The notes under the pieces are model-generated. The model was not told the origin of the DNA and did not search any database. It worked only from the letters and a program-made list of their open reading frames with translations. Shown here in pieces: positions 1,119 to 55,370 of a DNA stretch of 64,000 bases; the first letter of the stretch is position 1, and every line of letters begins with the position of its first letter. The DNA comes from Candidatus Gastranaerophilales bacterium. GTDB taxonomy: Bacteria; Cyanobacteriota; Vampirovibrionia; Gastranaerophilales; Gastranaerophilaceae. The stretch is taken from assembly GCA_944325315.1 (NCBI GenBank), contig CALVAA010000002.1, positions 1-64,000 on the forward strand, in the 5' to 3' direction. The translations under genes were made by a program, and so were the position numbers.

Positions 1119-3107
1119 CTATTTTAATGGCACTACCCTTGTGATACAACGAACCGAAAAAGCCTCATACTTGTATCTAGTTGATTCGTTAATTGTGTAT
1201 TCGCCTTGATTTTCCACATTGATGTTTTCTTTGGTATTTTCATTTCCAAATGCCATTCTATGGGGTGCGCAGTGCGTATCCTTGCCGTCAACTTTACATT
1301 TTTTCATTAATGCATTTGTAGAACTGTTCGAGCAAAGCGGCCAAGTACCACCGCCAAATCCGCAAAAATTAGCTTCAAGCGGTGCGTTAAATAACGCATT
1401 TTGCCAATCAGCTTTTTTAATCAGAGCCCAGGAAGCTCCAAGTAAATCAATTTTAGAGCAAATATATACTGCAGCTTTTTGAGTACAAACTAATCTATCA
1501 GAACCATCTGTTGCAGTATCTCCATCCCAGCAACATCTTTTTGAGTTAGTATCATTTGTACAGTTACCACTGCCTGCCTTTAGATATGAAACACCGGAAA
1601 TTTCTTTTTTTTGATTATTCTTATTTACACAAGCACCGAGCTTAGAAGAATAATACGCACTTCCGCAGTCAGCTGCTTTAGTTGGTGGACCCCAGCAATA
1701 TCCGTCGCTTTTAAGAGTATAGCCCGATACACATGCACTACATTTACCTGTAGCTTTATTGCAAGTAGGAGAACATTTTCTGGGTAAACCGGAGCACTCT
1801 TTACAATTGCCGCTGTTACCTGCTGCAGAATAGTACCCATCAGCACAAGCTTTCCTGTTTACACCGTCGGTACATTTATAACCCGCTTCGCATTTAACAC
1901 AATTTCCACCGGATACATAGTATCCTTTAGAGCATTTGGTACAAGCACAACTTGTATTATAAGTAGAACAGCTTGCTTTTTCTGCACAACATATACCACC
2001 GGTCAATTTATATCCTGAATTGCAACCACTGCATCCGCAGCTAGTATTATAAGAAGCGCAATTGGAAACATTACCGCAGCATTTACCGCCTGATAAAGTA
2101 TATCCTGAATTGCAACCACTGCATCCGCAGCTTGTATTATAAGAAGCGCAATTGGAAACATTACCGCAGCATCTACCGCTAACAAGAGTATATCCTGAAT
2201 TGCAACTGCTGCACCCGCAAGTGGTTGTAGAACAATTAGAACAATTTACAACAACCGAAGAACAATTCTTACAACTACTCTGACCGGTGTCTTTCTGACA
2301 AGTTCCTGCGCCACATGCAACAGGTGTTCCGTTACACTTCCAACCCGCAGGACAAGTAAGACAAGTAGTTCCCCTATAATTACCGCTCCAATTTCCGCTT
2401 GCATCCGTAGCATAAGTACCTGCCCCACAAGCTGAACAAGAAGAAGCCTTTGCATGGGAATAATGAGCATCTTTTGTCCAGCAATCACCATGACCGCTTC
2501 CGCCGGGGCAATAATATCCGGCTTCGCAGTCTGTACAATCAGTGTTTCCTTCTCCTGAATTGTATGTTCCTGCGGGACATGCCGCACACACGGTATCAAG
2601 CCCCTTATTAGGGTTATAAGTACCTGGTGCACACTTCAAACAAGAAGTCCGACCTGGATTATCCTGATATTCGCCTCTATCACATTGTGCTCTATTGATG
2701 CCGTCAGCGCATTTGTATCCCTTAGGACAAACTTTGCAGCTGTTGTTTTCAAGATAGTACCCCGGTTTGCATTGTGTGCATTGAGCACCCCTTTGACATA
2801 GTTTGCAGTTGATGTCAATTGTTGTGCAGGCAATGCAGTTGCAGGTTTCTGTTTCTGTGTATGTTCCTGCTGAACATAATTTGTTGCATACAAGACACCT
2901 TTTTGTTTTTTCACAGAGTTTGCATTCAGGACCGAATTTTTCTTCACAGTCTATGGTTAGGTTGACCAGATTTGTTGAAAGGTTTAGTTTTCTTCCTGTT
3001 ATTTTTTTTGTGACAATAGGAGTAACGGATGCTGCTATGCATGCTATTGCAATAAGAGCAACCATCATCTCAACAAGCGAAAACGCCCATTTGTTCTTAG
3101 AATTCAT
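1119..3107 (-). CDS. Cysteine-rich prepilin-type surface protein
   Basis: This is a 662-residue protein that starts like a type IV prepilin or pseudopilin. After a short basic leader come A8 and F9, with E13 at the +5 position, and then a roughly 20-residue hydrophobic helix. A prepilin peptidase would be expected to cut before F9, with Ala rather than Gly at -1. Residues 50-540 are dominated by Cys-Gly-rich modules (CxxC, CxxCxxGY) resembling growth-factor-receptor or furin-like repeats. They include three near-identical 30-residue units. The last 100 residues form a different domain containing WALIKKADW and SVRCIT. It is probably anchored in or displayed from the envelope and stiffened by disulfides. 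It diverges from the glycosyltransferase operon. The N-terminus is a confident call; the function is unknown. Confidence 0.85.
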   Translation of the reverse strand: MNSKNKWAFSLVEMMVALIAIACIAASVTPIVTKKITGRKLNLSTNLVNLTIDCEEKFGPECKLCEKTKRCLVCNKLCSAGTYTETETCNCIACTTIDINCKLCQRGAQCTQCKPGYYLENNSCKVCPKGYKCADGINRAQCDRGEYQDNPGRTSCLKCAPGTYNPNKGLDTVCAACPAGTYNSGEGNTDCTDCEAGYYCPGGSGHGDCWTKDAHYSHAKASSCSACGAGTYATDASGNWSGNYRGTTCLTCPAGWKCNGTPVACGAGTCQKDTGQSSCKNCSSVVVNCSNCSTTTCGCSSCNSGYTLVSGRCCGNVSNCASYNTSCGCSGCNSGYTLSGGKCCGNVSNCASYNTSCGCSGCNSGYKLTGGICCAEKASCSTYNTSCACTKCSKGYYVSGGNCVKCEAGYKCTDGVNRKACADGYYSAAGNSGNCKECSGLPRKCSPTCNKATGKCSACVSGYTLKSDGYCWGPPTKAADCGSAYYSSKLGACVNKNNQKKEISGVSYLKAGSGNCTNDTNSKRCCWDGDTATDGSDRLVCTQKAAVYICSKIDLLGASWALIKKADWQNALFNAPLEANFCGFGGGTWPLCSNSSTNALMKKCKVDGKDTHCAPHRMAFGNENTKENINVENQGEYTINESTRYKYEAFSVRCITRVVPLK
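2011..2280 (-). repeat. 90-bp tandem repeats inside the Cys-rich gene
   Basis: Three in-frame units begin with the same string (TATCCTGAATTGCAAC on the plus strand) at 2011, 2101 and 2191, an exact period of 90 bp, or 30 residues. The first two are almost identical and the third has diverged. Each encodes a CxxCNSGY...GGxCC...NCxxYNTSC module. This suggests recent expansion by slippage or recombination. Confidence 0.85.
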
Positions 3108-16328: not shown

Positions 16329-16447
16329 AGTAAAAGTTTAGCTCAACAAAAGGGTATATTCAACAAATAATATTAATTTTTATTTACAAAATGTCAATAA
16401 TTTTTATTGATTATTTTTGTAGGCAAGGTAATGGATGTGAGGTAAAG

Positions 16448-18049
16448 ATGTATATTAGCAAAATTAATACACTAAAATCATACGGTTTAAATCCCAAAAT
16501 AAGAACTTTTAAGACCAATCCCATTTATTTTGGAAATTGCCAAAAAGACAGTTTTGAAAAACAAAAAGAAAAACAAAGCGAGACTTCAGGATATCTCAGA
16601 AAACTTTTTGATATAAAAACACAAATAGAAAAACTAAAAGAAGAATATAAAAAATACAAACAAGCAAAGTATACAAGCAAAGAAGAATTTGACAGAAATT
16701 TTGAAACTGCAGGAAAAATAAAAGAAAAAATCAAAGAATTAGACAACGAAGAAAAAGAGTTAGTTAAAAAAATTATACCCAATTCCGAATTTTTACTTGA
16801 TGATGCAATAAACTGGAAGCAAAGAAAAGAGATTCTCAAAAGTCGACCTGAAATAGTTGTATTGAATGAAAATAAAAAAGCACAGCAAGACACAAGCACT
16901 AAAGCTACTTTATATTATAGCCCGTATTTTCTTATCACCAAAACCGGAGCAAAAAACTTTTTAGATTTATCTTTTGAAACAAATAAATCAAACTACGAAA
17001 CATTAATGAAAGATTCAACACTGTCTCAAAAAAAACTTTGCGATTTATACGGTTTTACATATGGTGAAATACAAAGATATACAAAAGAAGGATACTTAAA
17101 CAAAATACAACTTAAAAACTGTTTCACGGGAGAATTTGAACCCATTACAATGTATGATATTGAAGACAGCCAAAACTTAAATAACGGGATTAAAAGAAAA
17201 TTACAACTGCGCAATATGCTTCCCAAACCATCAAAACACATAGATAAACCTTATATAAGCATAGAATACTTAGCTTCGTTGGGTTTTGGTACAAAAGAAG
17301 AAATTGAAGACAGTATTAAAGATAAAAAAATTGAGCCCCCGATTGAAATAGAAGCAAAAACAGCAAACAACAAAACAAAAACAGTAAGAGTAATTAATGT
17401 AAAAAGCCCCAAAAACGAAGGTGAGCTTAAATATTTAAGGAACAACAATAAAAAGCTTGCGCAAATCAATCAATTTGCGCAACTTGCAAAAACCGACATT
17501 GAAGATGTTGAAAACGGACTTTTGTCCGGTGAAATCGAAAACATAGGAGAATATCTGTTTTCTGAAGATAAACACCTGTACTTGTTTGATCTTAAAAACC
17601 CAAAAAATATCAATTTTGTAATAAAAAAACAAATAGAAAATTTAATTATTAGGTTAGAAAATAAAAGAAAAATTTCAACAATAAACAAAATTATATGGAA
17701 ACTTTCACCTTCGCTTGAAAAAGCATCAAAAAAGTATTGCGCAATGTATCCTGAAATAATTGAAATATTTAAAAAGCAAGATGAAATTACGCAATACGAA
17801 GAAAAAGTGTTAAAAGGCGAAATTAAAGAAGATGAATCAATTGCCCCGTATTTGACAAAAGAAGAAAGAGAAAAATTAAACAAATTCTTTAAAAGCGTAT
17901 GGATTCACTCAGACTACTCGGAAGTTAAAGAAGCAAGAAAAAAAGCAAACGCCGCATACAGACAATATAAAAAAGAAGGCATAGATGCAATAGAAGACAA
18001 GACAATAAGAAAAGTTATTGAGGAAGTGCTTAAAAACGAAGAAAGTTAA
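16448..18049 (+). CDS. Lineage-specific protein with HTH-like segments
   Basis: A 533-residue Lys-rich protein. I start it at the ATG at 16448, which has a GAGGT ribosome site, and not at an upstream ATG 57 bp earlier. Residues 1-40 carry a short N-terminal motif ending NPIYFGN, like two other unknowns in the window. Residues 45-115 are a charged coiled coil. Three later segments resemble excisionase/MerR-like helix-turn-helix units: KLCDLYGFTYGEIQRYTKEG, IEYLASLGFGTKEEIEDSI and FAQLAKTDIEDVENGLLSG. The function is unknown; a nucleic-acid or scaffold role is inferred. The next gene starts 2 bp after its stop, so the two form one unit. Confidence 0.7.
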   Translation: MYISKINTLKSYGLNPKIRTFKTNPIYFGNCQKDSFEKQKEKQSETSGYLRKLFDIKTQIEKLKEEYKKYKQAKYTSKEEFDRNFETAGKIKEKIKELDNEEKELVKKIIPNSEFLLDDAINWKQRKEILKSRPEIVVLNENKKAQQDTSTKATLYYSPYFLITKTGAKNFLDLSFETNKSNYETLMKDSTLSQKKLCDLYGFTYGEIQRYTKEGYLNKIQLKNCFTGEFEPITMYDIEDSQNLNNGIKRKLQLRNMLPKPSKHIDKPYISIEYLASLGFGTKEEIEDSIKDKKIEPPIEIEAKTANNKTKTVRVINVKSPKNEGELKYLRNNNKKLAQINQFAQLAKTDIEDVENGLLSGEIENIGEYLFSEDKHLYLFDLKNPKNINFVIKKQIENLIIRLENKRKISTINKIIWKLSPSLEKASKKYCAMYPEIIEIFKKQDEITQYEEKVLKGEIKEDESIAPYLTKEEREKLNKFFKSVWIHSDYSEVKEARKKANAAYRQYKKEGIDAIEDKTIRKVIEEVLKNEES

Positions 18050-18051
18050 AA

Positions 18052-19278
18052 ATGAGAATAAATCAAATAAATACAATCCCCAAAACAAAAGCAGCATTTT
18101 TCCAAAGTAAAATTAATATTAATTTTACTTCAAATGTTAAAAACGACACTTTTTCAAAGGAAAATAAATCGGAAAGCAAAAAAGCCTATGAAGATCTTGT
18201 TAAAGCAGCTGAAATAATGGGCTTTGAAGGGGATGAAGATGAAAAAGTTAATTTATTGATTACAAAAACACAAGAACTTGAAATGCTTGGAAGCGGTATT
18301 GAAGGAAAAGTTTATGCAATTCCGCATACAAATTTAGTTTTAAAAGCAAGACACAGTTTTGAAGCAGACAACCTGACAAAAAAAGCAATTGATAAAATAA
18401 ATGAACAAGACAGAGCAAACAATGTGTTACTTAAAGGCGAAAAATATCAAATAATGAGAAAAATATCCGGAGCAGACAGATCCGACGCACGAATCAGCTC
18501 CAGTATGGAAATATTTGAAATCATAACGGAAAATATGCCACAGATAGCATATAACGATTTAATTAAAAAAATCGCTAAAATACACCAGGCCGGATTATTT
18601 TTGGATAACCTCGGGGATAATTTTATTATTGATATTCAAAATGAAAAATTTGAACCTTTAGACAACCGCACAACAAGCAATTATTGCGGATATTCACACA
18701 AAAAAACAAAACAAAAGAAAAAATGTCTTGTTAATCCGATAAGCTGTGCATGTGATATGCTCAAAATACACCCTGTTAAAAGTACATTTCCCATGGTCTT
18801 TAAAAAAATATTAAAGGCAACGGCAAGTGACTGTGAAAACTTTGACACCTTTATTATAGATAACGACGTTAAAAGATATCTTAAAAATAATGAAATTTTT
18901 GAAGCACCTGTAGCTGAACTTAAAAAACTGGAAACAAAAAAGAAAATATTAAAAGCAATAGGCTACAACAGCGCTTTGGTAAAAGCAAAGTTGAAAAAAC
19001 AAATTGATGTATACAACAATAAATTGGACACACTGGTCCAAGATCAAGATTGCCATATTTCAAAAGAAGACTTATTGCAGCTTAAAAAACTTATTGATAT
19101 AAATGTTAAAATAAGAGTTGATAGTATGCTTTTAATTGCCAAAAAAGAAAATATCGAAATAGCAGACTACTCAACAAACGCAACAAAAAAAGAGCTTAAA
19201 GACGCCATTAAAAAACATAGGCTTGAAGCCCGCAAAATCAAAGATAAACTAATAGAAAAATATAATTTATATATTTAG
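18052..19278 (+). CDS. Divergent protein-kinase-like protein
   Basis: A 408-residue protein with no signal peptide. Residues 23-28 (NINFTS) are the N-terminal motif shared with neighbours. Residues 79-206 show a kinase-like order: a glycine-rich loop LGSGIEGKVY (79-88), a possible ATP lysine K98 in LVLKAR, then IHQAG...DNLGDNFIID (177-194). There D185 and N190 could match the catalytic Asp and Asn, and PLDN (D204) could stand for the Mg-binding DFG. The remaining 200 residues are a Lys-rich helical region. I infer a small or degenerate kinase, perhaps acting on other proteins or as a secreted effector. It forms a unit with the gene ending 2 bp upstream. Confidence 0.6.
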   Translation: MRINQINTIPKTKAAFFQSKININFTSNVKNDTFSKENKSESKKAYEDLVKAAEIMGFEGDEDEKVNLLITKTQELEMLGSGIEGKVYAIPHTNLVLKARHSFEADNLTKKAIDKINEQDRANNVLLKGEKYQIMRKISGADRSDARISSSMEIFEIITENMPQIAYNDLIKKIAKIHQAGLFLDNLGDNFIIDIQNEKFEPLDNRTTSNYCGYSHKKTKQKKKCLVNPISCACDMLKIHPVKSTFPMVFKKILKATASDCENFDTFIIDNDVKRYLKNNEIFEAPVAELKKLETKKKILKAIGYNSALVKAKLKKQIDVYNNKLDTLVQDQDCHISKEDLLQLKKLIDINVKIRVDSMLLIAKKENIEIADYSTNATKKELKDAIKKHRLEARKIKDKLIEKYNLYI

Positions 19279-21588: not shown

Positions 21589-21612
21589 CGCTCAGTTTGC
21601 CTTTTAGGCGAT

Positions 21613-21684
21613 TTGTAAAGTTTTGTAACAAAAAAAGCTTACGTTGCAATTAGATACTTAATATATACTTTATATATATGTAAG
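21613..21684 (+). promoter_or_regulatory. Candidate control region of paralog A
   Basis: TTGTAA occurs twice with a 10-bp period (21613 and 21623), about 117 bp before the gene at 21730. A TATA-rich segment (21670-21684) is the likely -10 region. The layout resembles that of the two downstream paralogs, although the sequence differs. Confidence 0.4.
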
Positions 21685-21729: not shown

Positions 21730-22197
21730 ATGGGCTGGGTATCATTATCACTAAGAAAATTAAGTCTAAAAGAAGGCATTAACTCACACGAATTGCGTGA
21801 TATCCAAATTTCACGTTTAACAAGATCAAATCAAAGAAACTTATCCTATGATCAATCCGTGTATAACAAAAACAAGCAGAACGAATTAAATGATGCTAAA
21901 TCAGAATATATGGAAATAAGAGACGAAAGACCCGATGTTCAATCTGAAGAATATGCCGAATGGCAGCTTGACTACAGTGCTGCTAAAGAAGACTATGAAG
22001 CACAAAAACTCGACATCAATAACTATTATGATGATTTAATGAGCGAAATAGAAGAAGAAGCGACCGATGAAGAAACAAGACTTCAAGAAGAACAAACAAC
22101 TTTAGAGGCACAATTGGAAGCAATGAGAAGCGAATTTGAAAGTGTAAACGATCAAATAAGTTCAGATATTGAAAACTCTAAATTGAAATTAAGTTAA
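21730..22197 (+). CDS. MGWV-family coiled-coil protein, paralog A
   Basis: A 155-residue, strongly acidic, cysteine-free protein with no signal peptide. It starts MGWVSLSLRKLSLKE, continues LRDIQISRLTRSNQR and ends with a long coiled coil and DISSDIENSKLKLS. Two further paralogs downstream share both ends (MGWV...QISR..R; EEEAxDxET...xxIKLS) but differ in the middle. Here the middle contains QSEEYAEWQLDYS. I do not recognise a family. Conserved ends with a variable core resemble flagellins, EspA-like filaments and other self-assembling or exported helical proteins; that is inference only. The ribosome site is GAGGT. A terminator follows inside the convergent kinase gene. Confidence 0.75.
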   Translation: MGWVSLSLRKLSLKEGINSHELRDIQISRLTRSNQRNLSYDQSVYNKNKQNELNDAKSEYMEIRDERPDVQSEEYAEWQLDYSAAKEDYEAQKLDINNYYDDLMSEIEEEATDEETRLQEEQTTLEAQLEAMRSEFESVNDQISSDIENSKLKLS

Positions 22198-22217
22198 TAA
22201 TATAAAGGAATAATATA

Positions 22218-22736
22218 TCAGCCGATGAATTTAGTGAACAACATACAAATTTCATCGGCTTTTTTATCTAAAGCTTCCAAATTGCTGTTGTTCTCAATAA
22301 TTAAGTCCCAATTTCGATAATTATCCAACTCAGTTTCGGATCTATCGTCAATATTTGTTATAATCCCTCTCTGTGCCCTGTTTTCGACACTTGATTCAAC
22401 TCTTATACAATACGCACCTTGTCTTTTAAAAAAATTCAACTCTTTTTCAAAGCGAACATCAGGCACAATAATTTTATCCATCTTAACAAGACACTTGAGC
22501 CAGTATTCACCGTCTTTTGACCTTCCCCAATTGCCTAATTCAATTAAATCATTTCTGTATAGGTGTTTGTTTTTTTCAATTTCCTCAAAGGTTAGACTTT
22601 TTCTTTTTGCATACTCAATTTTTATTGCATCCCCAATTCCTACCCTTTTAAAGCCCGCTAGCTTACCAAGAATAATTTTTGCCAATGTGTCTTTGCCGCA
22701 GTATTGTTTTCCTGAAATAACAATAATTTGTTTCAT
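22218..22736 (-). CDS. P-loop nucleotide kinase (dNMP-kinase-like)
   Basis: A 172-residue P-loop kinase with GKQYCGKDT (9-17), IGDAIKIEYAKR and VPDVRFEKELNFFKRQGAYCIRV. The last matches the DVRF-Ex-E-hx4-G pattern of deoxynucleoside-monophosphate kinases and related proteins. It would phosphorylate a nucleotide or similar small molecule; the substrate is unknown. I chose the ATG at 22736 (MKQIIVISGK). A TATAAT box ends 6 nt before it, suggesting a leaderless transcript. An in-frame ATG at 22766 would place the box inside the gene. Confidence 0.7.
   Translation of the reverse strand: MKQIIVISGKQYCGKDTLAKIILGKLAGFKRVGIGDAIKIEYAKRKSLTFEEIEKNKHLYRNDLIELGNWGRSKDGEYWLKCLVKMDKIIVPDVRFEKELNFFKRQGAYCIRVESSVENRAQRGIITNIDDRSETELDNYRNWDLIIENNSNLEALDKKADEICMLFTKFIG
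22220..22266 (+). terminator. Terminator of paralog A, inside the opposite gene
   Basis: A 10-bp perfect stem (AGCCGATGAA 22220-22229, TTCATCGGCT 22251-22260) is followed by TTTTTA. The hairpin is made from the last codons of the minus-strand kinase gene (FIG stop), so one sequence serves as coding end and as terminator of the opposing gene. Confidence 0.75.
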
Positions 22737-22780
22737 AAATGGATTATAAGATAAATACAATATCATCGCAAATTAAAACA

Positions 22781-22853
22781 TTAAGAATTGTTAAGATGTT
22801 TTAAAAGACGGGCAATAATTTCTCTCCAAAAAACTTTATTTGTTTGTAGGGAA
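22781..22853 (+). promoter_or_regulatory. Candidate control region of paralog B
   Basis: TTAA occurs at 22781, 22791 and 22801, a triple direct repeat with 10-bp period, 121 bp before the ATG of paralog B. TTGTAGGGAA lies at 22844-22853, 58 bp before the ATG. The same two elements occur at 122 and 58 bp before paralog C. No regulator is known. Confidence 0.5.
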
Positions 22854-22901
22854 ATAATACAATATTAATATTACACACAACCAAGGGGAAAGAGGTATAC
22901 T

Positions 22902-23672
22902 ATGGGATGGGTTACGCTGTCTTGTCGCAATAAGGAAGATATTGCAACAAAGTCTTATTATCAATTCCGCCTGCTCCAAATTTCAAGGGAACAAAGACAA
23001 AGAGCAAGGTACTATTCTTTAATGAGTACCAATGTTAAAAACGACCAGGCGAATGAAAATTCTCAAATTAATGCTAACTACAATTCAACAGTGGAAAGAC
23101 TCAGAAATGAGAAAGATACGTTGAGTTTGATTCAGTCCATAAAAGAAAAGCAAGAATCCGGAGCTGAATCTGTTGAATTTAGTCAAGAAGAAAAAAATCT
23201 AATTGAAAGCGATTTGTATAAATCCGCAAAAGAAAAAGAAGAAACCGGCTCGAATAGTTTCACCCAAGAAGAAAAAGAGCTTTTAGAAAGTGACTTATAT
23301 AAATCGATAACAGAAAAATTCGAATCAATTTCTAATTCAAGTGAATATTCCCAAGAAGAAATAGAAATAATGCAAAGTGAGGAATACATAAACAATGATG
23401 ATTCAGTCTCTGAATTAGATAACCAAATTAAAGATATACAGCAACAAATAGAAGATGCTCAAATCAATCGTCAAAGTGAATATGAATCTACTATGCTGCG
23501 CTATGAAAGTGAACTTGCTTTGATTGAAGAAGAGGCTAACGATGTTGAGACAATGTATCAACTCGAGCAAAACGACGTGGAAACACAACTGGAATCAGTG
23601 TCTAACGAACAGCAAGCAGTTAAAGACTCCGTAAGTACCGAAATACAAAACGGAACAATAAAGCTAAGTTAG
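22902..23672 (+). CDS. MGWV-family coiled-coil protein, paralog B
   Basis: A 256-residue member of the same family. It opens MGWVTLSCRNKED, continues YYQFRLLQISREQRQRARYY, and its C-terminal 60 residues (YESELALIEEEANDVET... to IQNGTIKLS) match paralog C closely. The middle (about 85-170) holds three degenerate copies of a 27-29-residue unit built on (F/Y)(S/T)QEE(K/I)..(L/I/M).S(D/E).Y. It is strongly acidic and predicted to be almost all helix. The length difference from A and C comes from these repeats. Ribosome site GAGG. Function unknown; structural or exported roles are inferred. Confidence 0.75.
   Translation: MGWVTLSCRNKEDIATKSYYQFRLLQISREQRQRARYYSLMSTNVKNDQANENSQINANYNSTVERLRNEKDTLSLIQSIKEKQESGAESVEFSQEEKNLIESDLYKSAKEKEETGSNSFTQEEKELLESDLYKSITEKFESISNSSEYSQEEIEIMQSEEYINNDDSVSELDNQIKDIQQQIEDAQINRQSEYESTMLRYESELALIEEEANDVETMYQLEQNDVETQLESVSNEQQAVKDSVSTEIQNGTIKLS
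23165..23405 (+). repeat. Three internal repeats in paralog B
   Basis: In-frame units FSQEEKNLIESDLYKS, FTQEEKELLESDLYKS and YSQEEIEIMQSEEYIN are spaced 27-29 residues apart, with low-complexity linkers rich in Glu, Ser and Lys. The nucleotide copies are imperfect, so the expansion is not recent. Confidence 0.65.
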
Positions 23673-23693
23673 TTTAATAAATAATAACAGTAA

Positions 23694-23719
23694 AGAGGCT
23701 TGAATATTTTCAAGCCTCT
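23694..23719 (+). terminator. Hairpin after paralog B
   Basis: A perfect 10-bp stem (AGAGGCTTGA / TCAAGCCTCT) with a 6-nt loop lies 22 nt after the stop codon. No T-run follows it, so it may stabilise the mRNA end rather than terminate strongly. Confidence 0.5.
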
Positions 23720-23793
23720 GATAAAACAAATCTAATTTGAAAAACACTCTTTTTTCAAAAGAATGCATATTTTGTACAGCTTTTAAGAGATTG

Positions 23794-23867
23794 TTAAGTT
23801 TTATTAAGCAATAAAATAAAAAAAAGCAATTTTTAACTTGAAATTTTTTTTATTATATTGTAGGGAA
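23794..23867 (+). promoter_or_regulatory. Candidate control region of paralog C
   Basis: TTAA repeats at 23794 and 23804 (10-bp period) lie 122 bp before the ATG. TTGTAGGGAA at 23858-23867 lies exactly 58 bp before it, as in paralog B. The 5' untranslated region ends GAGGAAAGAGGTTTTACT, almost the same as for B (GGGGAAAGAGGTATACT). Confidence 0.5.
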
Positions 23868-23915
23868 CTTAACACACACGTTACAAAATAAACTTACGAG
23901 GAAAGAGGTTTTACT

Positions 23916-24422
23916 ATGGGATGGGTTACACTTACTTTAAGAAAGAAAGAATTAAAGGTTGAGCATTCGTATTATCAATTGCGCGCCTTACAAATTTCAA
24001 GAGAAAAAAGAGCACTGGCAAGACAAAAGCAGTTGAGTTCGACTGAAATCAACAACCAGCAGTCTCAGGAGTTGGCAAGCATTAAAGAATCAATCTATAA
24101 TGCAGCATACGACGATTATTACAATACAACCGAAGCAAATAAGCAGGCTGCTGAAGCAAATGGCGAAACGGTAGATAATAGCGAAGCGCAAACAGAATTA
24201 AACAGAGCTATTATGGAATACCAAACACAAGCCGACGCAATAAAATCAATGTATGAAAGCGAGCTTGCGATGGTAGAAGAAGAAGCAAATGATCAGGAAA
24301 CACAGCTGGATGTTGAACAGGTAGATGTTGAAACACAGATGGAAGCAATATCCGAAGAAATGAGTGCGGTATCCGATGCAATAAGCACTGAAATTCAAAA
24401 CTCAACAATCAAATTATCCTAA
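23916..24422 (+). CDS. MGWV-family coiled-coil protein, paralog C
   Basis: A 168-residue acidic protein with no cysteine and no signal peptide. The N-terminal block (MGWVTLTLRKKELK, then YYQLRALQISREKRALAR) and the C-terminal block (YESELAMVEEEANDQET to IQNSTIKLS) are the family marks. The middle is rich in Ala, Glu, Asn and Tyr. Heptad-like spacing over the last 70 residues suggests a coiled coil. It ends before a two-way terminator shared with the convergent EF-hand gene. Function unknown. Confidence 0.75.
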   Translation: MGWVTLTLRKKELKVEHSYYQLRALQISREKRALARQKQLSSTEINNQQSQELASIKESIYNAAYDDYYNTTEANKQAAEANGETVDNSEAQTELNRAIMEYQTQADAIKSMYESELAMVEEEANDQETQLDVEQVDVETQMEAISEEMSAVSDAISTEIQNSTIKLS

Positions 24423-24485: not shown

Positions 24486-25022
24486 TTATCCGAAAACTTT
24501 ATCTTCTTTATCGCTTGTTGAATCCGTATCTTGTATTCGGGATTCATAAAACATAGACATTTGTGTCGGGTTAATTCTTGGGTACTTTTCTTTTACATCT
24601 TTAATCTGTTCGTTTATTCTATAAGCATTAATTTCAGCCTGCGTAACTCTGCCGTCGTGATTAGTATCTATTGTATTAAAATTAGATAAAACCGTATCCA
24701 ACAGACTGGACATTGTAGAGCCGCCGTTTGCACACAATTGGGTTAATTCATTATAGGTCATACCTTGAGTTTTTAATTTTGTAACATAATTATTTACATC
24801 ATTGATACCGATTTTTCCGTCACCGTCCATATCAATTTGATTAAAGTTGGTCATCATATAGCTTCTAAACGTCTGATTAACGGTATATCTTATTGTATCG
24901 TTTGAAGGATTTAGGATGTTATCCAATGTTAAACCGTCTGCACCATTTAACATTAACAAATAATTTGCATTTAAACCCGATATTGCACCGGTAAATAAAC
25001 TTGAACCGATTAAATTTGCCAT
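24486..25022 (-). CDS. EF-hand calcium-binding protein
   Basis: A 178-residue protein with two EF-hand loops. Loop 1 is DMDGDGKIGIND (64-75), ending in Asp instead of the usual Glu. Loop 2 is the canonical DTNHDGRVTQAE (119-130). Each is flanked by helices. The first 35 residues are apolar and glycine-rich (LIGSSLFTGAISGLNANYLLML) but lack a positive start, so it is not a standard signal peptide. It should bind Ca2+ and change shape or interact with a partner. It sits beside the MGWV-family genes, with which it shares only a terminator. Confidence 0.75.
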   Translation of the reverse strand: MANLIGSSLFTGAISGLNANYLLMLNGADGLTLDNILNPSNDTIRYTVNQTFRSYMMTNFNQIDMDGDGKIGINDVNNYVTKLKTQGMTYNELTQLCANGGSTMSSLLDTVLSNFNTIDTNHDGRVTQAEINAYRINEQIKDVKEKYPRINPTQMSMFYESRIQDTDSTSDKEDKVFG

Positions 25023-29216: not shown

Positions 29217-30263
29217 TTATTCTTTTGCTGAAATTTTATAAAAATTGCAGTTATTATACCGTTCAAAACCGCTAATTGAATCCCAATCACTAAGATACAT
29301 GTTAACGTTCTTTCTGACCGGAATAACGGCAGCTTCAGATTCTCTGTATACTTCATTTACATCTTTGGCAAAATGTTCACTAGCGTCAAAAAGTGCTTTT
29401 TTTACTTTTAAATTGCCGTCACTGTTTGCTAATTCAAAAATATAATCAGCAACTATGCCAAATTCAGGAATTTCATCTTTAGCGTATTTACTGTCTTTAT
29501 ATTCAACAACAGGATTGACATATACTTTAGCGCTTTTCAAATTGTCATTTTCATCAAGTGAATATACAACCATAGAACCTGCAGTTAAAGAATTATCTTT
29601 TACTTTAACGTTATTTAAAGTTACAGGTAAATCAAAAGCTTTTGTAAATTTCAAACTTTCTATGTCCAAACCCGAAGGATAATAAAGATTTATCTGTCTT
29701 GCGTCATATGAATTATTGGATAGTTTATGAAAACGTTTTATTTCGGCAAAATTTTTAAAATCATATACTCTCCTTGCAGCCGTCAGCTCATCTTTTGAAT
29801 TTATAATTCCGTCAACAACATAGCTTACCGGAGTGTTTAATTCTATTTGGCTATTTGTCGGTATAGGTTGTTTTTCGTAATATATTCTTGATTCAATATC
29901 ATCATTTTCATCTACAACCTTAAATTTTAAGCCCTTATACCTCGAAAAACTATAGCTGTCGTTTTCAACAAAGTCTTTAGCATCTTGGAATTTAGCAAAT
30001 GAATCAATCAAATTTTCATACGCCCATTTACAAATATCAATTCCTCTTGGAATAGAATGATTAATATAACCTATATTTTGCCACATTTGAGCATTCTTTT
30101 CATCATATACAGAAGATATGTAGCTTGATGTTTTGTATAAAGTTTTTTTAATGCTGTTATTTGAATCATACAAAAAAGATTCTGGATTTAAACTTTTGCT
30201 TTCATTAATATCATTTATACCAAAAGATATATTTTGTCTAAATGGAGTAATTTTTGTAATCAT
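29217..30263 (-). CDS. Protein of unknown function with N-terminal ISFG motif
   Basis: A 348-residue protein when started at the ATG at 30263 (MITKITPFRQNISFG). A longer version starting at 30356 would add an implausible Phe-rich stretch. It has no signal peptide. The N-terminal motif (basic or polar stretch, then ISFGIND) resembles the starts of the proteins at 16448 and 18052. The body alternates beta-like and polar segments and has several Asn/Lys-rich loops and a central SYVVDGIINSKDELTAARRVYD. I recognise no family. Its partner or role is unknown. Confidence 0.65.
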   Translation of the reverse strand: MITKITPFRQNISFGINDINESKSLNPESFLYDSNNSIKKTLYKTSSYISSVYDEKNAQMWQNIGYINHSIPRGIDICKWAYENLIDSFAKFQDAKDFVENDSYSFSRYKGLKFKVVDENDDIESRIYYEKQPIPTNSQIELNTPVSYVVDGIINSKDELTAARRVYDFKNFAEIKRFHKLSNNSYDARQINLYYPSGLDIESLKFTKAFDLPVTLNNVKVKDNSLTAGSMVVYSLDENDNLKSAKVYVNPVVEYKDSKYAKDEIPEFGIVADYIFELANSDGNLKVKKALFDASEHFAKDVNEVYRESEAAVIPVRKNVNMYLSDWDSISGFERYNNCNFYKISAKE

Positions 30264-30338
30264 AATTATATATCCGTCATTAACTTCAAATATACAAAAC
30301 AATAAAAAAAATTTTTTTGCTATAAGACAAAAAATAAA

Positions 30339-30354
30339 GGCGCAATAATGCGCC
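30339..30354 (-). terminator. Terminator of the 86-residue gene
   Basis: Read on the minus strand, GGCGCA-TTAT-TGCGCC is followed by TTTATTTTTTG. It lies 56 nt past the stop of the gene ending at 30410 and before the next minus-strand gene, so it separates the two transcripts. Confidence 0.65.
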
Positions 30355-30409
30355 ATTGCAAACCTACCTATAATCCCCCATTTCAGATAAATAATTACCG
30401 GTTAGATAA

Positions 30410-31605: not shown

Positions 31606-32060
31606 TGAAAAAAATAATAATAAGTGCTTTTTTAATTACACTTTTTTTATCATCAGCACCTTCTTTTTCAAATGACTACAAAAACACTCCATCAAGACCA
31701 AATCCAAAAGAAATCAACAGAATGATTGAAAAAAGACTTGATTTAACAAATGAGCAAAAAGAAGAAATTAAAACCGCTTTGCAAGAAAACAGAAAAGAAA
31801 TGAAAAAAATTATTAAACGAATGATATTTTTGCACGACAAAATAAAAACCGTATATCAAACAGAATCATCAAAATACCAAGCACACATCAAAACTGCACC
31901 CTACAAGGCCGAGTTGGTTATATTGAAGCAAAGGGCAGATATGCTAAGAAATGAAAACAGAAAAGCTTTTGAAAATTTACTTAACAAAGAACAAAAAACC
32001 GAATTTGAAAAAATTAAACAGGAAATGCGGCAAAACAAACCGCATCATTTAAAAAATTAG
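31605..32060 (+). CDS. Periplasmic Spy/CpxP/CnrX-like protein
   Basis: A 151-residue protein with a Sec signal peptide (about 1-22, cut after FS/SN). The helical body contains an LTxEQ motif (DLTNEQKEEI) and a second copy near the end (LLNKEQKTEF). This is the pattern of Spy, CpxP, ZraP and CnrX, which sense metals or bind unfolded proteins in the periplasm. It has few His/Cys, so metal sensing is not evident. Its position directly after the sigma gene suggests a sensor or an output of that module. Confidence 0.75.
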   Translation: MKKIIISAFLITLFLSSAPSFSNDYKNTPSRPNPKEINRMIEKRLDLTNEQKEEIKTALQENRKEMKKIIKRMIFLHDKIKTVYQTESSKYQAHIKTAPYKAELVILKQRADMLRNENRKAFENLLNKEQKTEFEKIKQEMRQNKPHHLKN

Positions 32061-32656
32061 TCTTCTTTTTTCATATTTTTTTTAAATTTTTTTATTTCAT
32101 CCTTAATTCGGGATTTTTGTGCTTTTTTTTCTGAATTTACATTTTTTTTATCCATTTTTGATTGAATTTTTGCTTTTTTTCTTTTAATTATTTTATCGGC
32201 CTTTTGACTTTGTTTTTCCGCAGCGTTTTTGTTCAACTCATCTTTTGAAAAAGCATTTTTTATGCTTTTAAAGCTAAATTTGTTTTTTTGTTCGGCGGAT
32301 TCGCTTTTGGCTTTATCAAATTTTAAAATATCTTGAATGTTTTTTTTAAGGTTTGAAAGTTTGCTTTTTAACTTAGAAAAAACCCCTTTTTTAAACCCTA
32401 AAACACCGCCGCCGATAGCTAATGCACCGACAAAAAGAGCAACAAGCGCTTTTTTGACTTTACCTGTTTTTTTTGCTTTAGGATTCAAAGTTCCTTCTTT
32501 AATATCCTGTTTTTGGAAAGTATCATTTGCATATTGGTTTCCCGTTTTTATATACTCACTTAAAGACCCGCCCATATTAAGCACTGTCTTTCCACCCAAA
32601 TCAGCAATATTTGGGACAATATTTTTATATGGAATATGCGAATTGTAGTTTGTCAT
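32057..32656 (-). CDS. Lysine-rich protein with one membrane segment
   Basis: A 199-residue protein. Residues 68-88 (ALVALFVGALAIGGGVLGF) form one glycine-rich membrane helix. The following 110 residues are extremely Lys-rich and probably coiled coil or disordered. The first 60 residues are polar. No family is recognised. The high positive charge could bind nucleic acid or membrane lipids. It overlaps the Spy-like gene convergently by 4 bp. Confidence 0.6.
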   Translation of the reverse strand: MTNYNSHIPYKNIVPNIADLGGKTVLNMGGSLSEYIKTGNQYANDTFQKQDIKEGTLNPKAKKTGKVKKALVALFVGALAIGGGVLGFKKGVFSKLKSKLSNLKKNIQDILKFDKAKSESAEQKNKFSFKSIKNAFSKDELNKNAAEKQSQKADKIIKRKKAKIQSKMDKKNVNSEKKAQKSRIKDEIKKFKKNMKKED

Positions 32657-53208: not shown

Positions 53209-53589
53209 TCAATTATCTTCTTTTATGTCAAAAGTAGATATTGCTTTATTTGAAGCGGGTTCATAAGTATTTAAAATTTTCTTTGCTTTTTTTATTTGAC
53301 TGAATTTTTCTTTAGTTTTTTCTCTTAAGCTCACAACAAGGGCAATGTTTTGTTTTTCAAGATCAACCAGTTTCTTTCTGATTTTTAAAAGTTCTTTGTT
53401 TGATTTTATAGCATCCAATCTTGGTTTTTCAAAAAAAATAATTTGTCTCAAAAGCGCTTCTTTTTCCTGAATCGCAATATCCACGCTTTCCCAATCATCA
53501 TTTTCAATTAATTTATTTATGTATCTGTTTGACTTATAAAACTTATCATACAGAAGTTTTAAATGGTTATAATCGTTTATACTAAGCAC
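53209..53589 (-). CDS. FliT-like flagellar chaperone/hypothetical
   Basis: A 126-residue helical protein. I begin it at the GTG at 53589, which has an AGAGGA ribosome site inside the end of fliS (8-bp overlap). A longer ORF would translate the low-complexity Asp track in another frame. The body (LLYDKFYKSNRYINKLIENDDWESVDIAIQEKEALLRQI) fits the FliT fold of helical bundles and its NDDWE-type motif. The position after fliS also fits. FliT-type proteins escort the filament cap protein FliD and adjust flagellar gene expression. Confidence 0.65.
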   Translation of the reverse strand: MLSINDYNHLKLLYDKFYKSNRYINKLIENDDWESVDIAIQEKEALLRQIIFFEKPRLDAIKSNKELLKIRKKLVDLEKQNIALVVSLREKTKEKFSQIKKAKKILNTYEPASNKAISTFDIKEDN

Positions 53590-54055
53590 TGTAGCCGTCC
53601 TCTGAATCATCGTCATCGTCGTCATCATCGTCATCAGATGACTCATAGTAATCATCGGAATCATCTTTTTCTTTTATTTGTTCTTTTTGAGCAAGCATAA
53701 TAGCCTTTTCCCAAGTGGCTTTCAAACTTTTCAGATATTTTAAAACTTCATCAACTGGTTCGATTTCTCTTTTAATATTTGCATGGACAAGTCTTCTTAT
53801 AAAATATTCATACAAACTTTCAAGATTCTGCGCAAGCTGCGGTGAAATTTCTCTGTCAAGAGAGTTAATAAATTCCTGAATAATATTTTGTGCACCAATT
53901 AAATTATTGTGAGTGTTTTCAATTTCTTTATTGTTCATTGCAATTTTAGCTTTGTTTAAAAACTGAATCGCAGCATCGTAGAGCATAATAAGAATTTGTT
54001 CTTTTGAAGTTGTCTCAATATTGGCCTTTTGATATTGTTTAACGTATTGGTTCAT
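53582..54055 (-). CDS. fliS: Flagellar secretion chaperone FliS with acidic tail
   Basis: A 157-residue protein. Residues 1-125 are FliS: YVKQYQKANIETTSKEQILIMLYDAAIQFL, then the REISPQLAQNLESLYEYF helix. It binds flagellin in the cytoplasm and keeps it from polymerising. The C-terminal 25 residues are a run of Asp/Ser/Glu (DDDDDDDDDSED) encoded by a GTC/ATC-like repeat track. Such an acidic tail is not usual in FliS. It follows a FlaG-like gene and precedes the FliT-like one. Confidence 0.93.
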   Translation of the reverse strand: MNQYVKQYQKANIETTSKEQILIMLYDAAIQFLNKAKIAMNNKEIENTHNNLIGAQNIIQEFINSLDREISPQLAQNLESLYEYFIRRLVHANIKREIEPVDEVLKYLKSLKATWEKAIMLAQKEQIKEKDDSDDYYESSDDDDDDDDDDSEDGYSA

Positions 54056-54059
54056 ATTA

Positions 54060-54500
54060 TTAAAGTTTCCTATTAACTATACTGCCATTGAATTCTGACA
54101 TATAAGAAGCGAATTTTGTAAGTTGTGTTGCATCAATCTGTTCTAGAATCTGCTTTGTTGTTTTGTCTACTATCAAAATTGAGTTAGTATTATCATCAAT
54201 TTTAAGAATATACTTATCACTCATTGATAAATCATATTTTACCACATTTTTTATTTCACTTAAATCATTGTCTTCACCTTCGGCACTATTTTCACTATTT
54301 TCACTATTTTCACCATCAAAATCAAAAGTGTTTTGGTCATGGTCATTTTTTTTATCAGGATCTACAATCTGACCTTTTGACAAGCCGTCAACCGCTTTAT
54401 TTTGAATAATTTGACCAAAATTCCCGGCTTCATTCAGCTGAGCCGAATTATGCTCAGGTGTAACTCTTAACTGATTTATAGATATCCCGTCCAGGCCCAT
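54060..54500 (-). CDS. FlaG-like flagellar protein
   Basis: A 146-residue protein. The N-terminal half is polar and low complexity (NSENSENSAEGEDND). The C-terminal part (SDKYILKIDDNTNSILIVDKTTKQILEQIDATQLTKF) matches the FlaG pattern of filament-length proteins. It stands first in the flaG-fliS-fliT order with a 4-nt gap to fliS, so this is a flagellar operon. No flagellin or fliD gene is in the window. Confidence 0.75.
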   Translation of the reverse strand: MGLDGISINQLRVTPEHNSAQLNEAGNFGQIIQNKAVDGLSKGQIVDPDKKNDHDQNTFDFDGENSENSENSAEGEDNDLSEIKNVVKYDLSMSDKYILKIDDNTNSILIVDKTTKQILEQIDATQLTKFASYMSEFNGSIVNRKL

Positions 54501-54614
54501 GATAAACTTCTTTCGTTAATTAATTATAACTTATTTCACATATTTTTTAATAAATTATATAATGTATTTATAAACTGTTATAAGTTGGTTTTAAAAATAG
54601 AGGAATACTTTAAA

Positions 54615-55370
54615 ATGCAAAAAACATCAGATCTTTTTATTCAAAACATAAAAAATCTTCCGATTTGGGTAAAACAAGTAATGGCAAAAGAAATTGCCGA
54701 TGACTTGAAAGCAAAATTGGATGAATTCAACGAACTTATTCAAGGCGAAGACTTGTTTCAATATATGTGTCCAAAGGTTACTTTTAAAGGCAGACAAGAG
54801 CTCGAACAAAAAGTTTTGAGGCTTTCTGAGGGATACTACATATTTATGAAAGATTTGATTGAAGGATGCAATATTTTCGAAATAACTCTAAAAAACAACT
54901 GGGCACTTGCAGACAGCGCTAAAATATATACAAGATTATTGGAACTTGAATATATACAACAACCGGAAGACATTATATCAAGTAAAACAAGCGCAGTAGC
55001 ACTGTTCATAGCCGGAAAAATCAGAACGGGAGAATTTTTAAAAAGAATAAACAAAATTAACGTAGCCCAGCTTGAACAAGCAATAAGATACCAAAAAGAA
55101 CTAAATGACGAAGGAAGACATATAAAAATGGCAAGCATTTTAATAAAGTTAGGCTTTGTAACAGATAAAGGACTTGACAGCTTGCTGCTTTTAAAGGATG
55201 AATCCAAAAAACGCCTGAATCCGGCATTAGGGTTTATTTCTATAAAATACAAAGATGCTCAAGACGAGCAAAATCAAATCTATAGAATGCAAAGAGAAAT
55301 TGCAAGACTTGAAAATGAAAATATAATAATGAAAAAAAGACTTAAAAAGATTTTAAATATCAATGAATAA
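54615..55370 (+). CDS. GspE_N-like domain protein of unknown function
   Basis: A 251-residue protein starting at the ATG at 54615 with GAGGAA 8 nt before it. The region 145-215 (GEFLKRINKINVAQLEQAIRYQKELNDEGRHIKMASILIKLGFVTDKGL) matches the type II secretion/pilus ATPase N-terminal pattern (GEhLhxxxhhtxxQLxxAl). The start contains polar helices, and the end is a coiled coil. It diverges from the flagellar trio. It may adapt an assembly ATPase; this is inferred from the domain only. Confidence 0.65.
   Translation: MQKTSDLFIQNIKNLPIWVKQVMAKEIADDLKAKLDEFNELIQGEDLFQYMCPKVTFKGRQELEQKVLRLSEGYYIFMKDLIEGCNIFEITLKNNWALADSAKIYTRLLELEYIQQPEDIISSKTSAVALFIAGKIRTGEFLKRINKINVAQLEQAIRYQKELNDEGRHIKMASILIKLGFVTDKGLDSLLLLKDESKKRLNPALGFISIKYKDAQDEQNQIYRMQREIARLENENIIMKKRLKKILNINE

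What the first reader, a model, noticed from the sequence alone, without database searches (positions are those of the whole stretch)
21730..24422. Three paralogous MGWV...IKLS acidic coiled-coil proteins: a candidate new filament or secreted family
The proteins at 21730, 22902 and 23916 share an N-terminal block (MGWV(S/T)L, then (L/F)RxxQISRxxR) and a C-terminal block (EEEAxDxET... to (I/L)KLS) but have unrelated, acidic, helical middles of different length. They have no signal peptide and few or no Cys. Conserved ends with a variable middle are typical of flagellins, EspA-like filaments and some scaffold proteins that assemble through their ends. I recognise no named family. The paralogs have kept similar leaders, so they may be produced under the same signal. 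The window also has flagellar (T3SS-type) export genes 30 kb away. Link to export is inference.
Basis: partly seen in the sequence, partly recalled or inferred. Interest (0 to 1): 0.82.

Follow-up and report, generated by a model that had tools for sequence, protein, structure and literature searches.

The report
Hairpin protein family with unrecognised type-III-like exporter
Three neighbouring genes belong to an undescribed family of helical-hairpin proteins found only in the non-photosynthetic relatives of cyanobacteria, where it travels with a second, flagellum-derived protein exporter that had been read as leftover flagellar genes, so the proteins are probably its exported or surface-building parts.

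Summary
The three proteins share homologous N- and C-terminal blocks around unalignable middles. The genome holds at least nine members (107-429 aa), and relatives have up to about 30 matches. The superfamily is absent from Pfam, NCBIfam and PHROGs and was found only in Vampirovibrionia (Gastranaerophilales-like and Vampirovibrionales genomes). Vampirovibrionales carry a minimal 109-aa form; AlphaFold predicts an antiparallel two-helix hairpin for it and for the window protein, with the variable part at the hairpin tip. In 23 genomes a minimal member lies 6-15 kb from an operon encoding FliE, FliF, a FliG-like protein, FliH and a second FlhA (FlhA2). This operon exists in genomes without flagellin or a flagellar FlhA, and FlhA2 falls below NCBI's cut-offs for both FlhA and SctV. 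Conserved cassette partners are a 270-aa translocator-like protein and a 90-aa protein. Upstream regions are enriched, with the correct 2-nt spacing, in HLR1-like RpaB boxes; one member adjoins rpaB. Composition is secretion-like (few Cys, acidic). Best reading: exported hairpin subunits or decorations of a flagellum-derived type III system, coupled to RpaB. Export and filament formation are inferred, not shown.

The parts
21730..22197 (+). family member 1 (155 aa): helical-hairpin protein, no Cys
   Evidence: beats all 100 heptad-preserving shuffles against the minimal-family profile
22902..23672 (+). family member 2 (256 aa): same ends, longer repetitive acidic middle
   Evidence: weakest match to the minimal profile, 1 of 100 shuffles reaches it
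23916..24422 (+). family member 3 (168 aa): AlphaFold2 model is one antiparallel two-helix hairpin (helices 2-82 and 89-167, pLDDT 94)
21612..21629 (-). perfect HLR1-type direct repeat GTTACAAA-AC-TTTACAAA, about 118 bp upstream of member 1; candidate RpaB box
   Evidence: the only exact match in 64 kb; HLR1 definition from PMC9241938
22788..22804 (-). degenerate repeat of the same type upstream of member 2 (weak)
   Evidence: not individually above chance
23791..23807 (-). degenerate repeat TTAATAAAACTTAACAA upstream of member 3 (weak)
   Evidence: not individually above chance
24486..25022 (-). EF-hand pair protein, conserved convergent neighbour of the array across the genus; relation to the family unknown
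   Evidence: Pfam EF-hand_7 5e-10; synteny in L048, L049, L051, L053

Best explanation
The three genes encode members of a Vampirovibrionia-specific superfamily of exported helical-hairpin proteins. SHOWN: (1) N- and C-terminal blocks are homologous across the superfamily and are predicted to pack as one antiparallel hairpin, with the variable part inserted at the hairpin tip. (2) The superfamily co-occurs with a second flagellum-type export operon (lytic transglycosylase/FliE/FliF/FliG-like/FliH/FlhA2, with a separate rod cluster) that is independent of flagella. (3) Ancestral-type members sit in a conserved four-gene cassette beside that operon. (4) Upstream regions are enriched in correctly spaced HLR1-like RpaB boxes, and one member adjoins rpaB. 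INFERRED: the proteins are substrates of this second type III gate and leave the cell without a cleaved signal. The hairpin ends form the subunit-subunit interface of a short needle- or filament-like structure on its rod, or a coat at its tip, while the tip insert is displayed outside and diversifies, as flagellin D2/D3 does on a D0/D1 core. The window trio is a recent local expansion of compact surface variants, and RpaB ties their production to cell redox/energy state.
For: Homology: hhalign of the broad vs minimal profiles, prob 97, E 1e-10, full length; 21 of 22 beat all heptad-preserving shuffles. Fold. Co-occurrence in a 146-genome class sample: family in 70 genomes, of which 68 also have a full-length FlhA2 at >=60% identity; no listed family-negative genome has one. 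Linkage: 23 of 29 genomes have a minimal member on the FlhA2 contig, all 6.5-15 kb away; cassette long member / 270 aa / 90 aa / 108 aa, with the minimal member next to the 'MSYKND' protein also in another order (L142, L159). G029: two members beside a paralog of the operon's transglycosylase. G138: a member about 110 bp upstream of a FlhA-cytoplasmic-domain protein. Flagella-independent: G028, G029, G033, G034 lack flagellin and a flagellar-type FlhA yet have the second FlhA and the family, and keep rod-like genes. Composition: zero-Cys 70% vs 16% of length-matched soluble controls, pI 4.7 vs 6.0, like the genome's flagellins at 4.5. Regulation: 42% vs 10% of controls with a 2-nt spacer and 11% AT-matched; little excess at other spacers except 1 nt; the neighbour of the C9 member is RpaB by NF045944, 361 vs cut-off 330.
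Against: No experiment; no direct evidence of export. The window trio itself is not next to export genes. Co-occurrence and synteny are clade-level, so few independent events. Some family-negative genomes (f10-f12) have FlhA proteins 41-49% identical to FlhA2, possibly a distant version of the system without the family; G077 has the family without a full FlhA2. One member in G254 lies in a flagellar locus (L180), so flagellar export cannot be excluded. The hairpin fold is generic (Foldseek best E 0.04) and fits cytoplasmic chaperones equally. Long members are less Cys-poor. The HLR1 test counts related promoters as if independent, and the c0-c1 cassette promoter has only a weak box.
Confidence: 0.55

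Rival explanations
1. Cytoplasmic scaffold or chaperones of the second type III system: members stay inside, bind the FlhA2 cytoplasmic domain or other substrates, and act like FliS/FliT/FliJ or prefoldin-like helpers.
For: Hairpins of this size resemble prefoldin and other cytosolic hairpins in Foldseek; one member precedes a FlhA-cytoplasmic-domain protein; minimal members are not acidic (median pI 8.1).
Against: Inserts of up to ~650 aa rich in Ser/Thr/Asn/Tyr and up to ~30 matches per genome are unlike chaperones; marked Cys depletion.
Confidence: 0.2
2. Effectors or diversified surface adhesins delivered by the second system (or by the flagellar one) that do not polymerise.
For: Variable middles, paralog expansion, local duplication; Foldseek also lists FadA and the IpaB coiled coil, not significantly.
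Against: Conservation of both ends down to the last residues and a near-invariant minimal form suggest a structural role; invariant residues are not confined to one helix face, weakly suggesting all-round contacts.
Confidence: 0.15
3. The FlhA2 association is only shared ancestry: both are old genes of one clade, and the family does something unrelated under RpaB (for example an envelope scaffold).
For: Most members lie at scattered loci far from export genes; co-occurrence is clade-level.
Against: The four-gene cassette stays within about 15 kb of the operon in 23 genomes, and pairs stay together where it has moved.
Confidence: 0.1

Closest known systems
Flagellin (D0/D1 helical ends with variable D2/D3)
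   Same: Conserved N- and C-terminal helices that pack together, a hypervariable insert of very different length, several paralogs, acidic, Cys-poor, no signal peptide
   Different: No sequence or profile homology (hhalign prob 0.1); ends are different motifs; the family occurs in genomes without flagellin
Type III needle and EspA-type filament proteins (SctF, EspA)
   Same: Small helical hairpin as minimal form (109 aa) with a Pro-containing turn (NLEPESP); gene near a type III operon
   Different: No sequence match in profile searches of PDB chains; the linked operon is flagellum-like (FliE, FliF, rod proteins), not an injectisome operon; a dedicated SctF/EspA profile was not available
Type III translocator coiled coil (IpaB N-terminal domain)
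   Same: Best Foldseek match of the minimal hairpin, TM-score 0.83
   Different: E 0.04, not significant; a fold shared by many hairpins; no hydrophobic segment in the family (the cassette neighbour 'MSYKND...' has one)
Filament-less hook-basal-body-like remnants in non-motile bacteria
   Same: Rod and export genes kept without filament genes
   Different: Here the system is a second copy coexisting with a flagellum in many genomes and has its own cassette; published work (PMC4040986, PMC3787301) treats the genes as incomplete flagella

Membership tests
Flagellin (PF00669/PF00700) | Match to the flagellin N- or C-terminal domain | tested here: not met
   no Pfam or NCBIfam hit; hhalign of minimal profile vs flagellins from the same lineage prob 0.1
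FliE | Profile similarity to FliE | tested here: not met
   hhalign prob 0.3 against FliE of the same system; rod proteins not compared directly
Type III needle / EspA-type filament | Sequence or profile match | tested here: not met
   no such entry in PDB profile searches at E up to 10 nor in Pfam/NCBIfam scans of members
Type III needle / EspA-type filament | Helical hairpin with termini together | tested here: met
   AlphaFold2 models pLDDT 94 and 90; generic fold, so weak
Type III needle / EspA-type filament | Export through the gate and polymerisation | not testable with these tools
   needs biochemistry or microscopy
Flagellar FlhA (second gate, FlhA2) | NCBIfam FlhA equivalog cut-off 772.1 | tested here: not met
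   687.5 bits
Injectisome SctV/HrcV (second gate, FlhA2) | NCBIfam SctV cut-off 692.25 | tested here: not met
   591.8 bits
RpaB regulon (HLR1) | Two (G/T)TTACA(T/A)(T/A) repeats 2 nt apart upstream | tested here: met
   enriched as a set and spacing-specific; perfect in 3 of 9 own genes, one of them in the window; HLR1 definition PMC9241938
RpaB regulon (HLR1) | RpaB binds and regulates | not testable with these tools
   RpaB is encoded next to the C9 member; binding untested

The most novel reading that the evidence does not exclude
Vampirovibrionia build a previously unrecognised surface machine: a flagellum-derived type III system with an FlhA2 gate and rod, whose axial or tip structure is made of this new hairpin superfamily (with a translocator-like partner), diversified by inserts at the hairpin tip and coupled to RpaB. 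It would be a third kind of type III apparatus besides flagella and classical injectisomes, present in gut commensals and possibly used by the algal predator Vampirovibrio.
Probability: 0.35. Interest if true: 0.9.

Novelty: new variant of a known kind. Interest (0 to 1): 0.76.

Why it matters
Incomplete flagellar gene sets in gut 'Melainabacteria' have been read as flagella lost or being lost. The evidence here points to a conserved second export system with its own candidate substrates, in bacteria of animal guts and in the lineage of an algal predator whose attack apparatus was proposed to be a type IV system. If right, it gives these mostly uncultured bacteria a defined way to put diversified proteins on or beyond their surface, adds a new family to type III biology, and suggests that a regulator of cyanobacterial light/redox responses (RpaB) controls surface proteins in their non-photosynthetic cousins.

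Tried and rejected
Pfam, NCBIfam and PHROGs for the three proteins: only sub-threshold coiled-coil noise. Viral contigs with one member: nothing, so no prophage link found. PDB profile searches: coiled coils only. Foldseek: no significant match. Flagellin and FliE homology rejected by profile comparison. Weak A4 'family' hits on FliE-like and other coiled-coil ORFs at E 0.01-1 discarded as noise. The idea of an N-terminal (V/I)SF(G/K) export tag on other proteins was not enriched by my pattern (11 vs 8 shuffled). The T3SS2 operon promoter showed no obvious HLR1 box by eye. Literature: no paper found describing a second type III system in this class.

Full report
1. Observation. The window encodes three + strand proteins at 21730, 22902 and 23916 with matching ends. 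They recognise each other at E 9e-15 to 3e-13 in a search of the genome, and a fourth lies at C9:42924. None matches Pfam, NCBIfam or PHROGs above noise. The 1.8 Mb genome, an RpaB response regulator of the cyanobacterial type and named relatives in the collection (Vampirovibrio, Vampirovibrionales, 'Cyanobacteria' MAGs) place it in the class Vampirovibrionia/'Melainabacteria'; that it is a Gastranaerophilales gut lineage is my inference.

2. How large the family is. The search with the 23916 protein finds members in every same-genus genome and in G029 of another genus. A 22-sequence profile hits 178 of 241 genomes of the order. Weak hits turned out to be members with other leaders (MYAIF, MSLLIFAYRK) and long members such as 'MGLAASQARYLALTARKSDLEY...' with middles bringing them to 763 aa. 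A broad profile hits all 52 same-order genomes in a class sample. The other orders hold a minimal 109-aa form, 'MGFAASQARYLMLTARKSDLELQGQFINQARLQLANITGALF..NLEPESP..LQARIAAIQ.IDKALELQ..R..TQ..A..TE..AV.KVI.KNI.S.FKTF'. The broad and minimal profiles align over their full length (prob 97, E 1e-10). As a control for coiled-coil similarity, 21 of 22 window-type proteins score above all 100 heptad-preserving shuffles of themselves against the minimal profile, and flagellin and FliE profiles from the same lineage give prob 0.1 and 0.3. With the minimal profile the own genome shows five further loci (C1, C3 twice, C7, C11), so at least nine genes in all.

3. Shape. AlphaFold2 on the family alignment gives the 168-aa window protein as two long antiparallel helices, 2-82 and 89-167, mean pLDDT 94, and the minimal form as helices 4-46 and 53-108, pLDDT 90. 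The variable middle is therefore at the hairpin tip and the conserved ends lie together at the base. Foldseek finds no significant relative; the best for the minimal form is the IpaB coiled coil of a type III translocator (TM 0.83, E 0.04), among prefoldin, FadA and ESX hairpins, and the window protein matches generic SMC-like coils. Invariant residues are spread round the helices rather than on one face, whereas hydropathy is periodic on the C-terminal helix; this fits a subunit buried on several sides but is weak evidence.

4. A second export system. A FlhA (FHIPEP) search gives two full-length proteins in most genomes of the order: one of flagellar type (E about 1e-263) and one more distant (about 1e-216), plus a ~486-aa protein with only the cytoplasmic domain. 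Five genomes (G028, G029, G030, G033, G034) lack the flagellar-type FlhA and have no flagellin, yet keep the second. Its operon reads: lytic transglycosylase, FliE, FliF, a FliG-like protein (by position and eye; no Pfam match), FliH, FlhA2. By NCBI's curated cut-offs FlhA2 is neither FlhA (687 vs 772) nor SctV (592 vs 692). Rod-like genes of FlgB/FlgC/FlgF-G type persist as a cluster in flagellin-free genomes. [quoted passage not shown] I found no paper calling this a second system.

5. Family and system go together. In a class sample of 146 genomes the minimal profile finds the family in 70 and in none of the other 76. Of the 70, 68 have a full-length FlhA2 at >=60% identity; the exceptions are G077 (only a cytoplasmic-domain-type hit) and G314 (56% complete). 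No family-negative genome has one at that identity. Families f10-f12 have FlhA proteins at 41-49% identity, which may be distant versions of the same gate. A phylum sample adds no convincing hit outside the class (one at 1.9e-4). Because this is clade-level, I put more weight on linkage: among 29 genomes for which a minimal member is listed, 23 have it on the FlhA2 contig, always 6.5-15 kb away, and the other six are on separate contigs of drafts. The neighbourhood is a cassette: long family member, a 270-aa 'MSYKND' protein with a hydrophobic stretch in its C-terminal half, a 90-aa basic protein, and a 108-aa minimal member, transcribed towards the operon. A minimal member paired with an 'MSYKND'-type protein occurs in another order (L142, L159). 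In the own genus the cassette has split into two pairs that stay together (C1 and C7). In G029 two members lie beside a paralog of the operon's transglycosylase; in G138 a member lies about 110 bp upstream of the FlhA-cytoplasmic-domain gene. One G254 member lies in a flagellar locus.

6. Common signal. Upstream regions of family genes are enriched in two TTA(A/C)A-type repeats. Scoring the HLR1 layout (PMC9241938), 42% of 168 family upstreams reach 15 of 16 positions against 10% of controls and 11% of AT-matched controls; the excess is specific to a 2-nt spacer (26% vs 12% at 1 nt, near background otherwise), Fisher p about 1e-25 ignoring relatedness. In the own genome three of nine are perfect, including 21612-21629 in the window, against 1 of 52 window controls. 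The C9 member directly precedes rpaB (RpaB identity), and so does its counterpart in G029.

7. Composition. 70% of family proteins of 150-260 aa have no Cys against 16% of soluble controls; median pI is 4.7 against 6.0, like the genome's own flagellins at 4.5.

8. Reading. The simplest account is that the family are substrates of the FlhA2 system, with ends built to assemble and tips free to vary; the compact window trio would be a local expansion. Export, assembly and RpaB control are inferences. Rivals are cytoplasmic helpers, non-polymerising effectors or adhesins, and mere shared ancestry.

Noticed in passing
G000:C21:14198-15238 (L044:7815-9266) and homologs: A ~486-aa soluble protein consisting of an unknown N-terminal part plus only the FlhA cytoplasmic domain is found in most genomes searched, unnamed; possibly a sorting factor.
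   Followed up: partly
L204:7585-8403 and homologs; L142:441-1394: 'MSYKND' protein (270-317 aa) with amphipathic ends and a hydrophobic Gly-rich stretch, next to family members in two orders; looks like a translocator, no family match.
   Followed up: partly
window 16391-18049, 18052-19278, 29217-30356, 32057-32656: Several large proteins without signal peptide begin with an Asn/Ser-rich stretch ending in a motif like ISFG/INFTS; a crude pattern was not enriched overall, but the look is recurrent.
   Followed up: partly
window 1119-3107 (-): Type IV pilin-like N-terminus followed by many Cys-rich CxxC repeats, an unusual combination; a similar Cys-rich protein without the pilin start is at L043:9089-10294.
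   Followed up: no
window 24486-25022 (-): EF-hand pair protein without signal peptide, strictly syntenic with the family array across the genus.
   Followed up: partly
window 53209-55370: FliS-like and other small flagellar-type genes (by eye) next to a protein (54585) whose homologs directly precede a family gene in three Vampirovibrionales genomes (L145, L148, L149, homology by eye).
   Followed up: partly
L175, L176 (Vampirovibrio chlorellavorus NCIMB 11383): The algal predator carries at least two minimal members; its attack apparatus was proposed to be a type IV system (PMC4451040).
   Followed up: no
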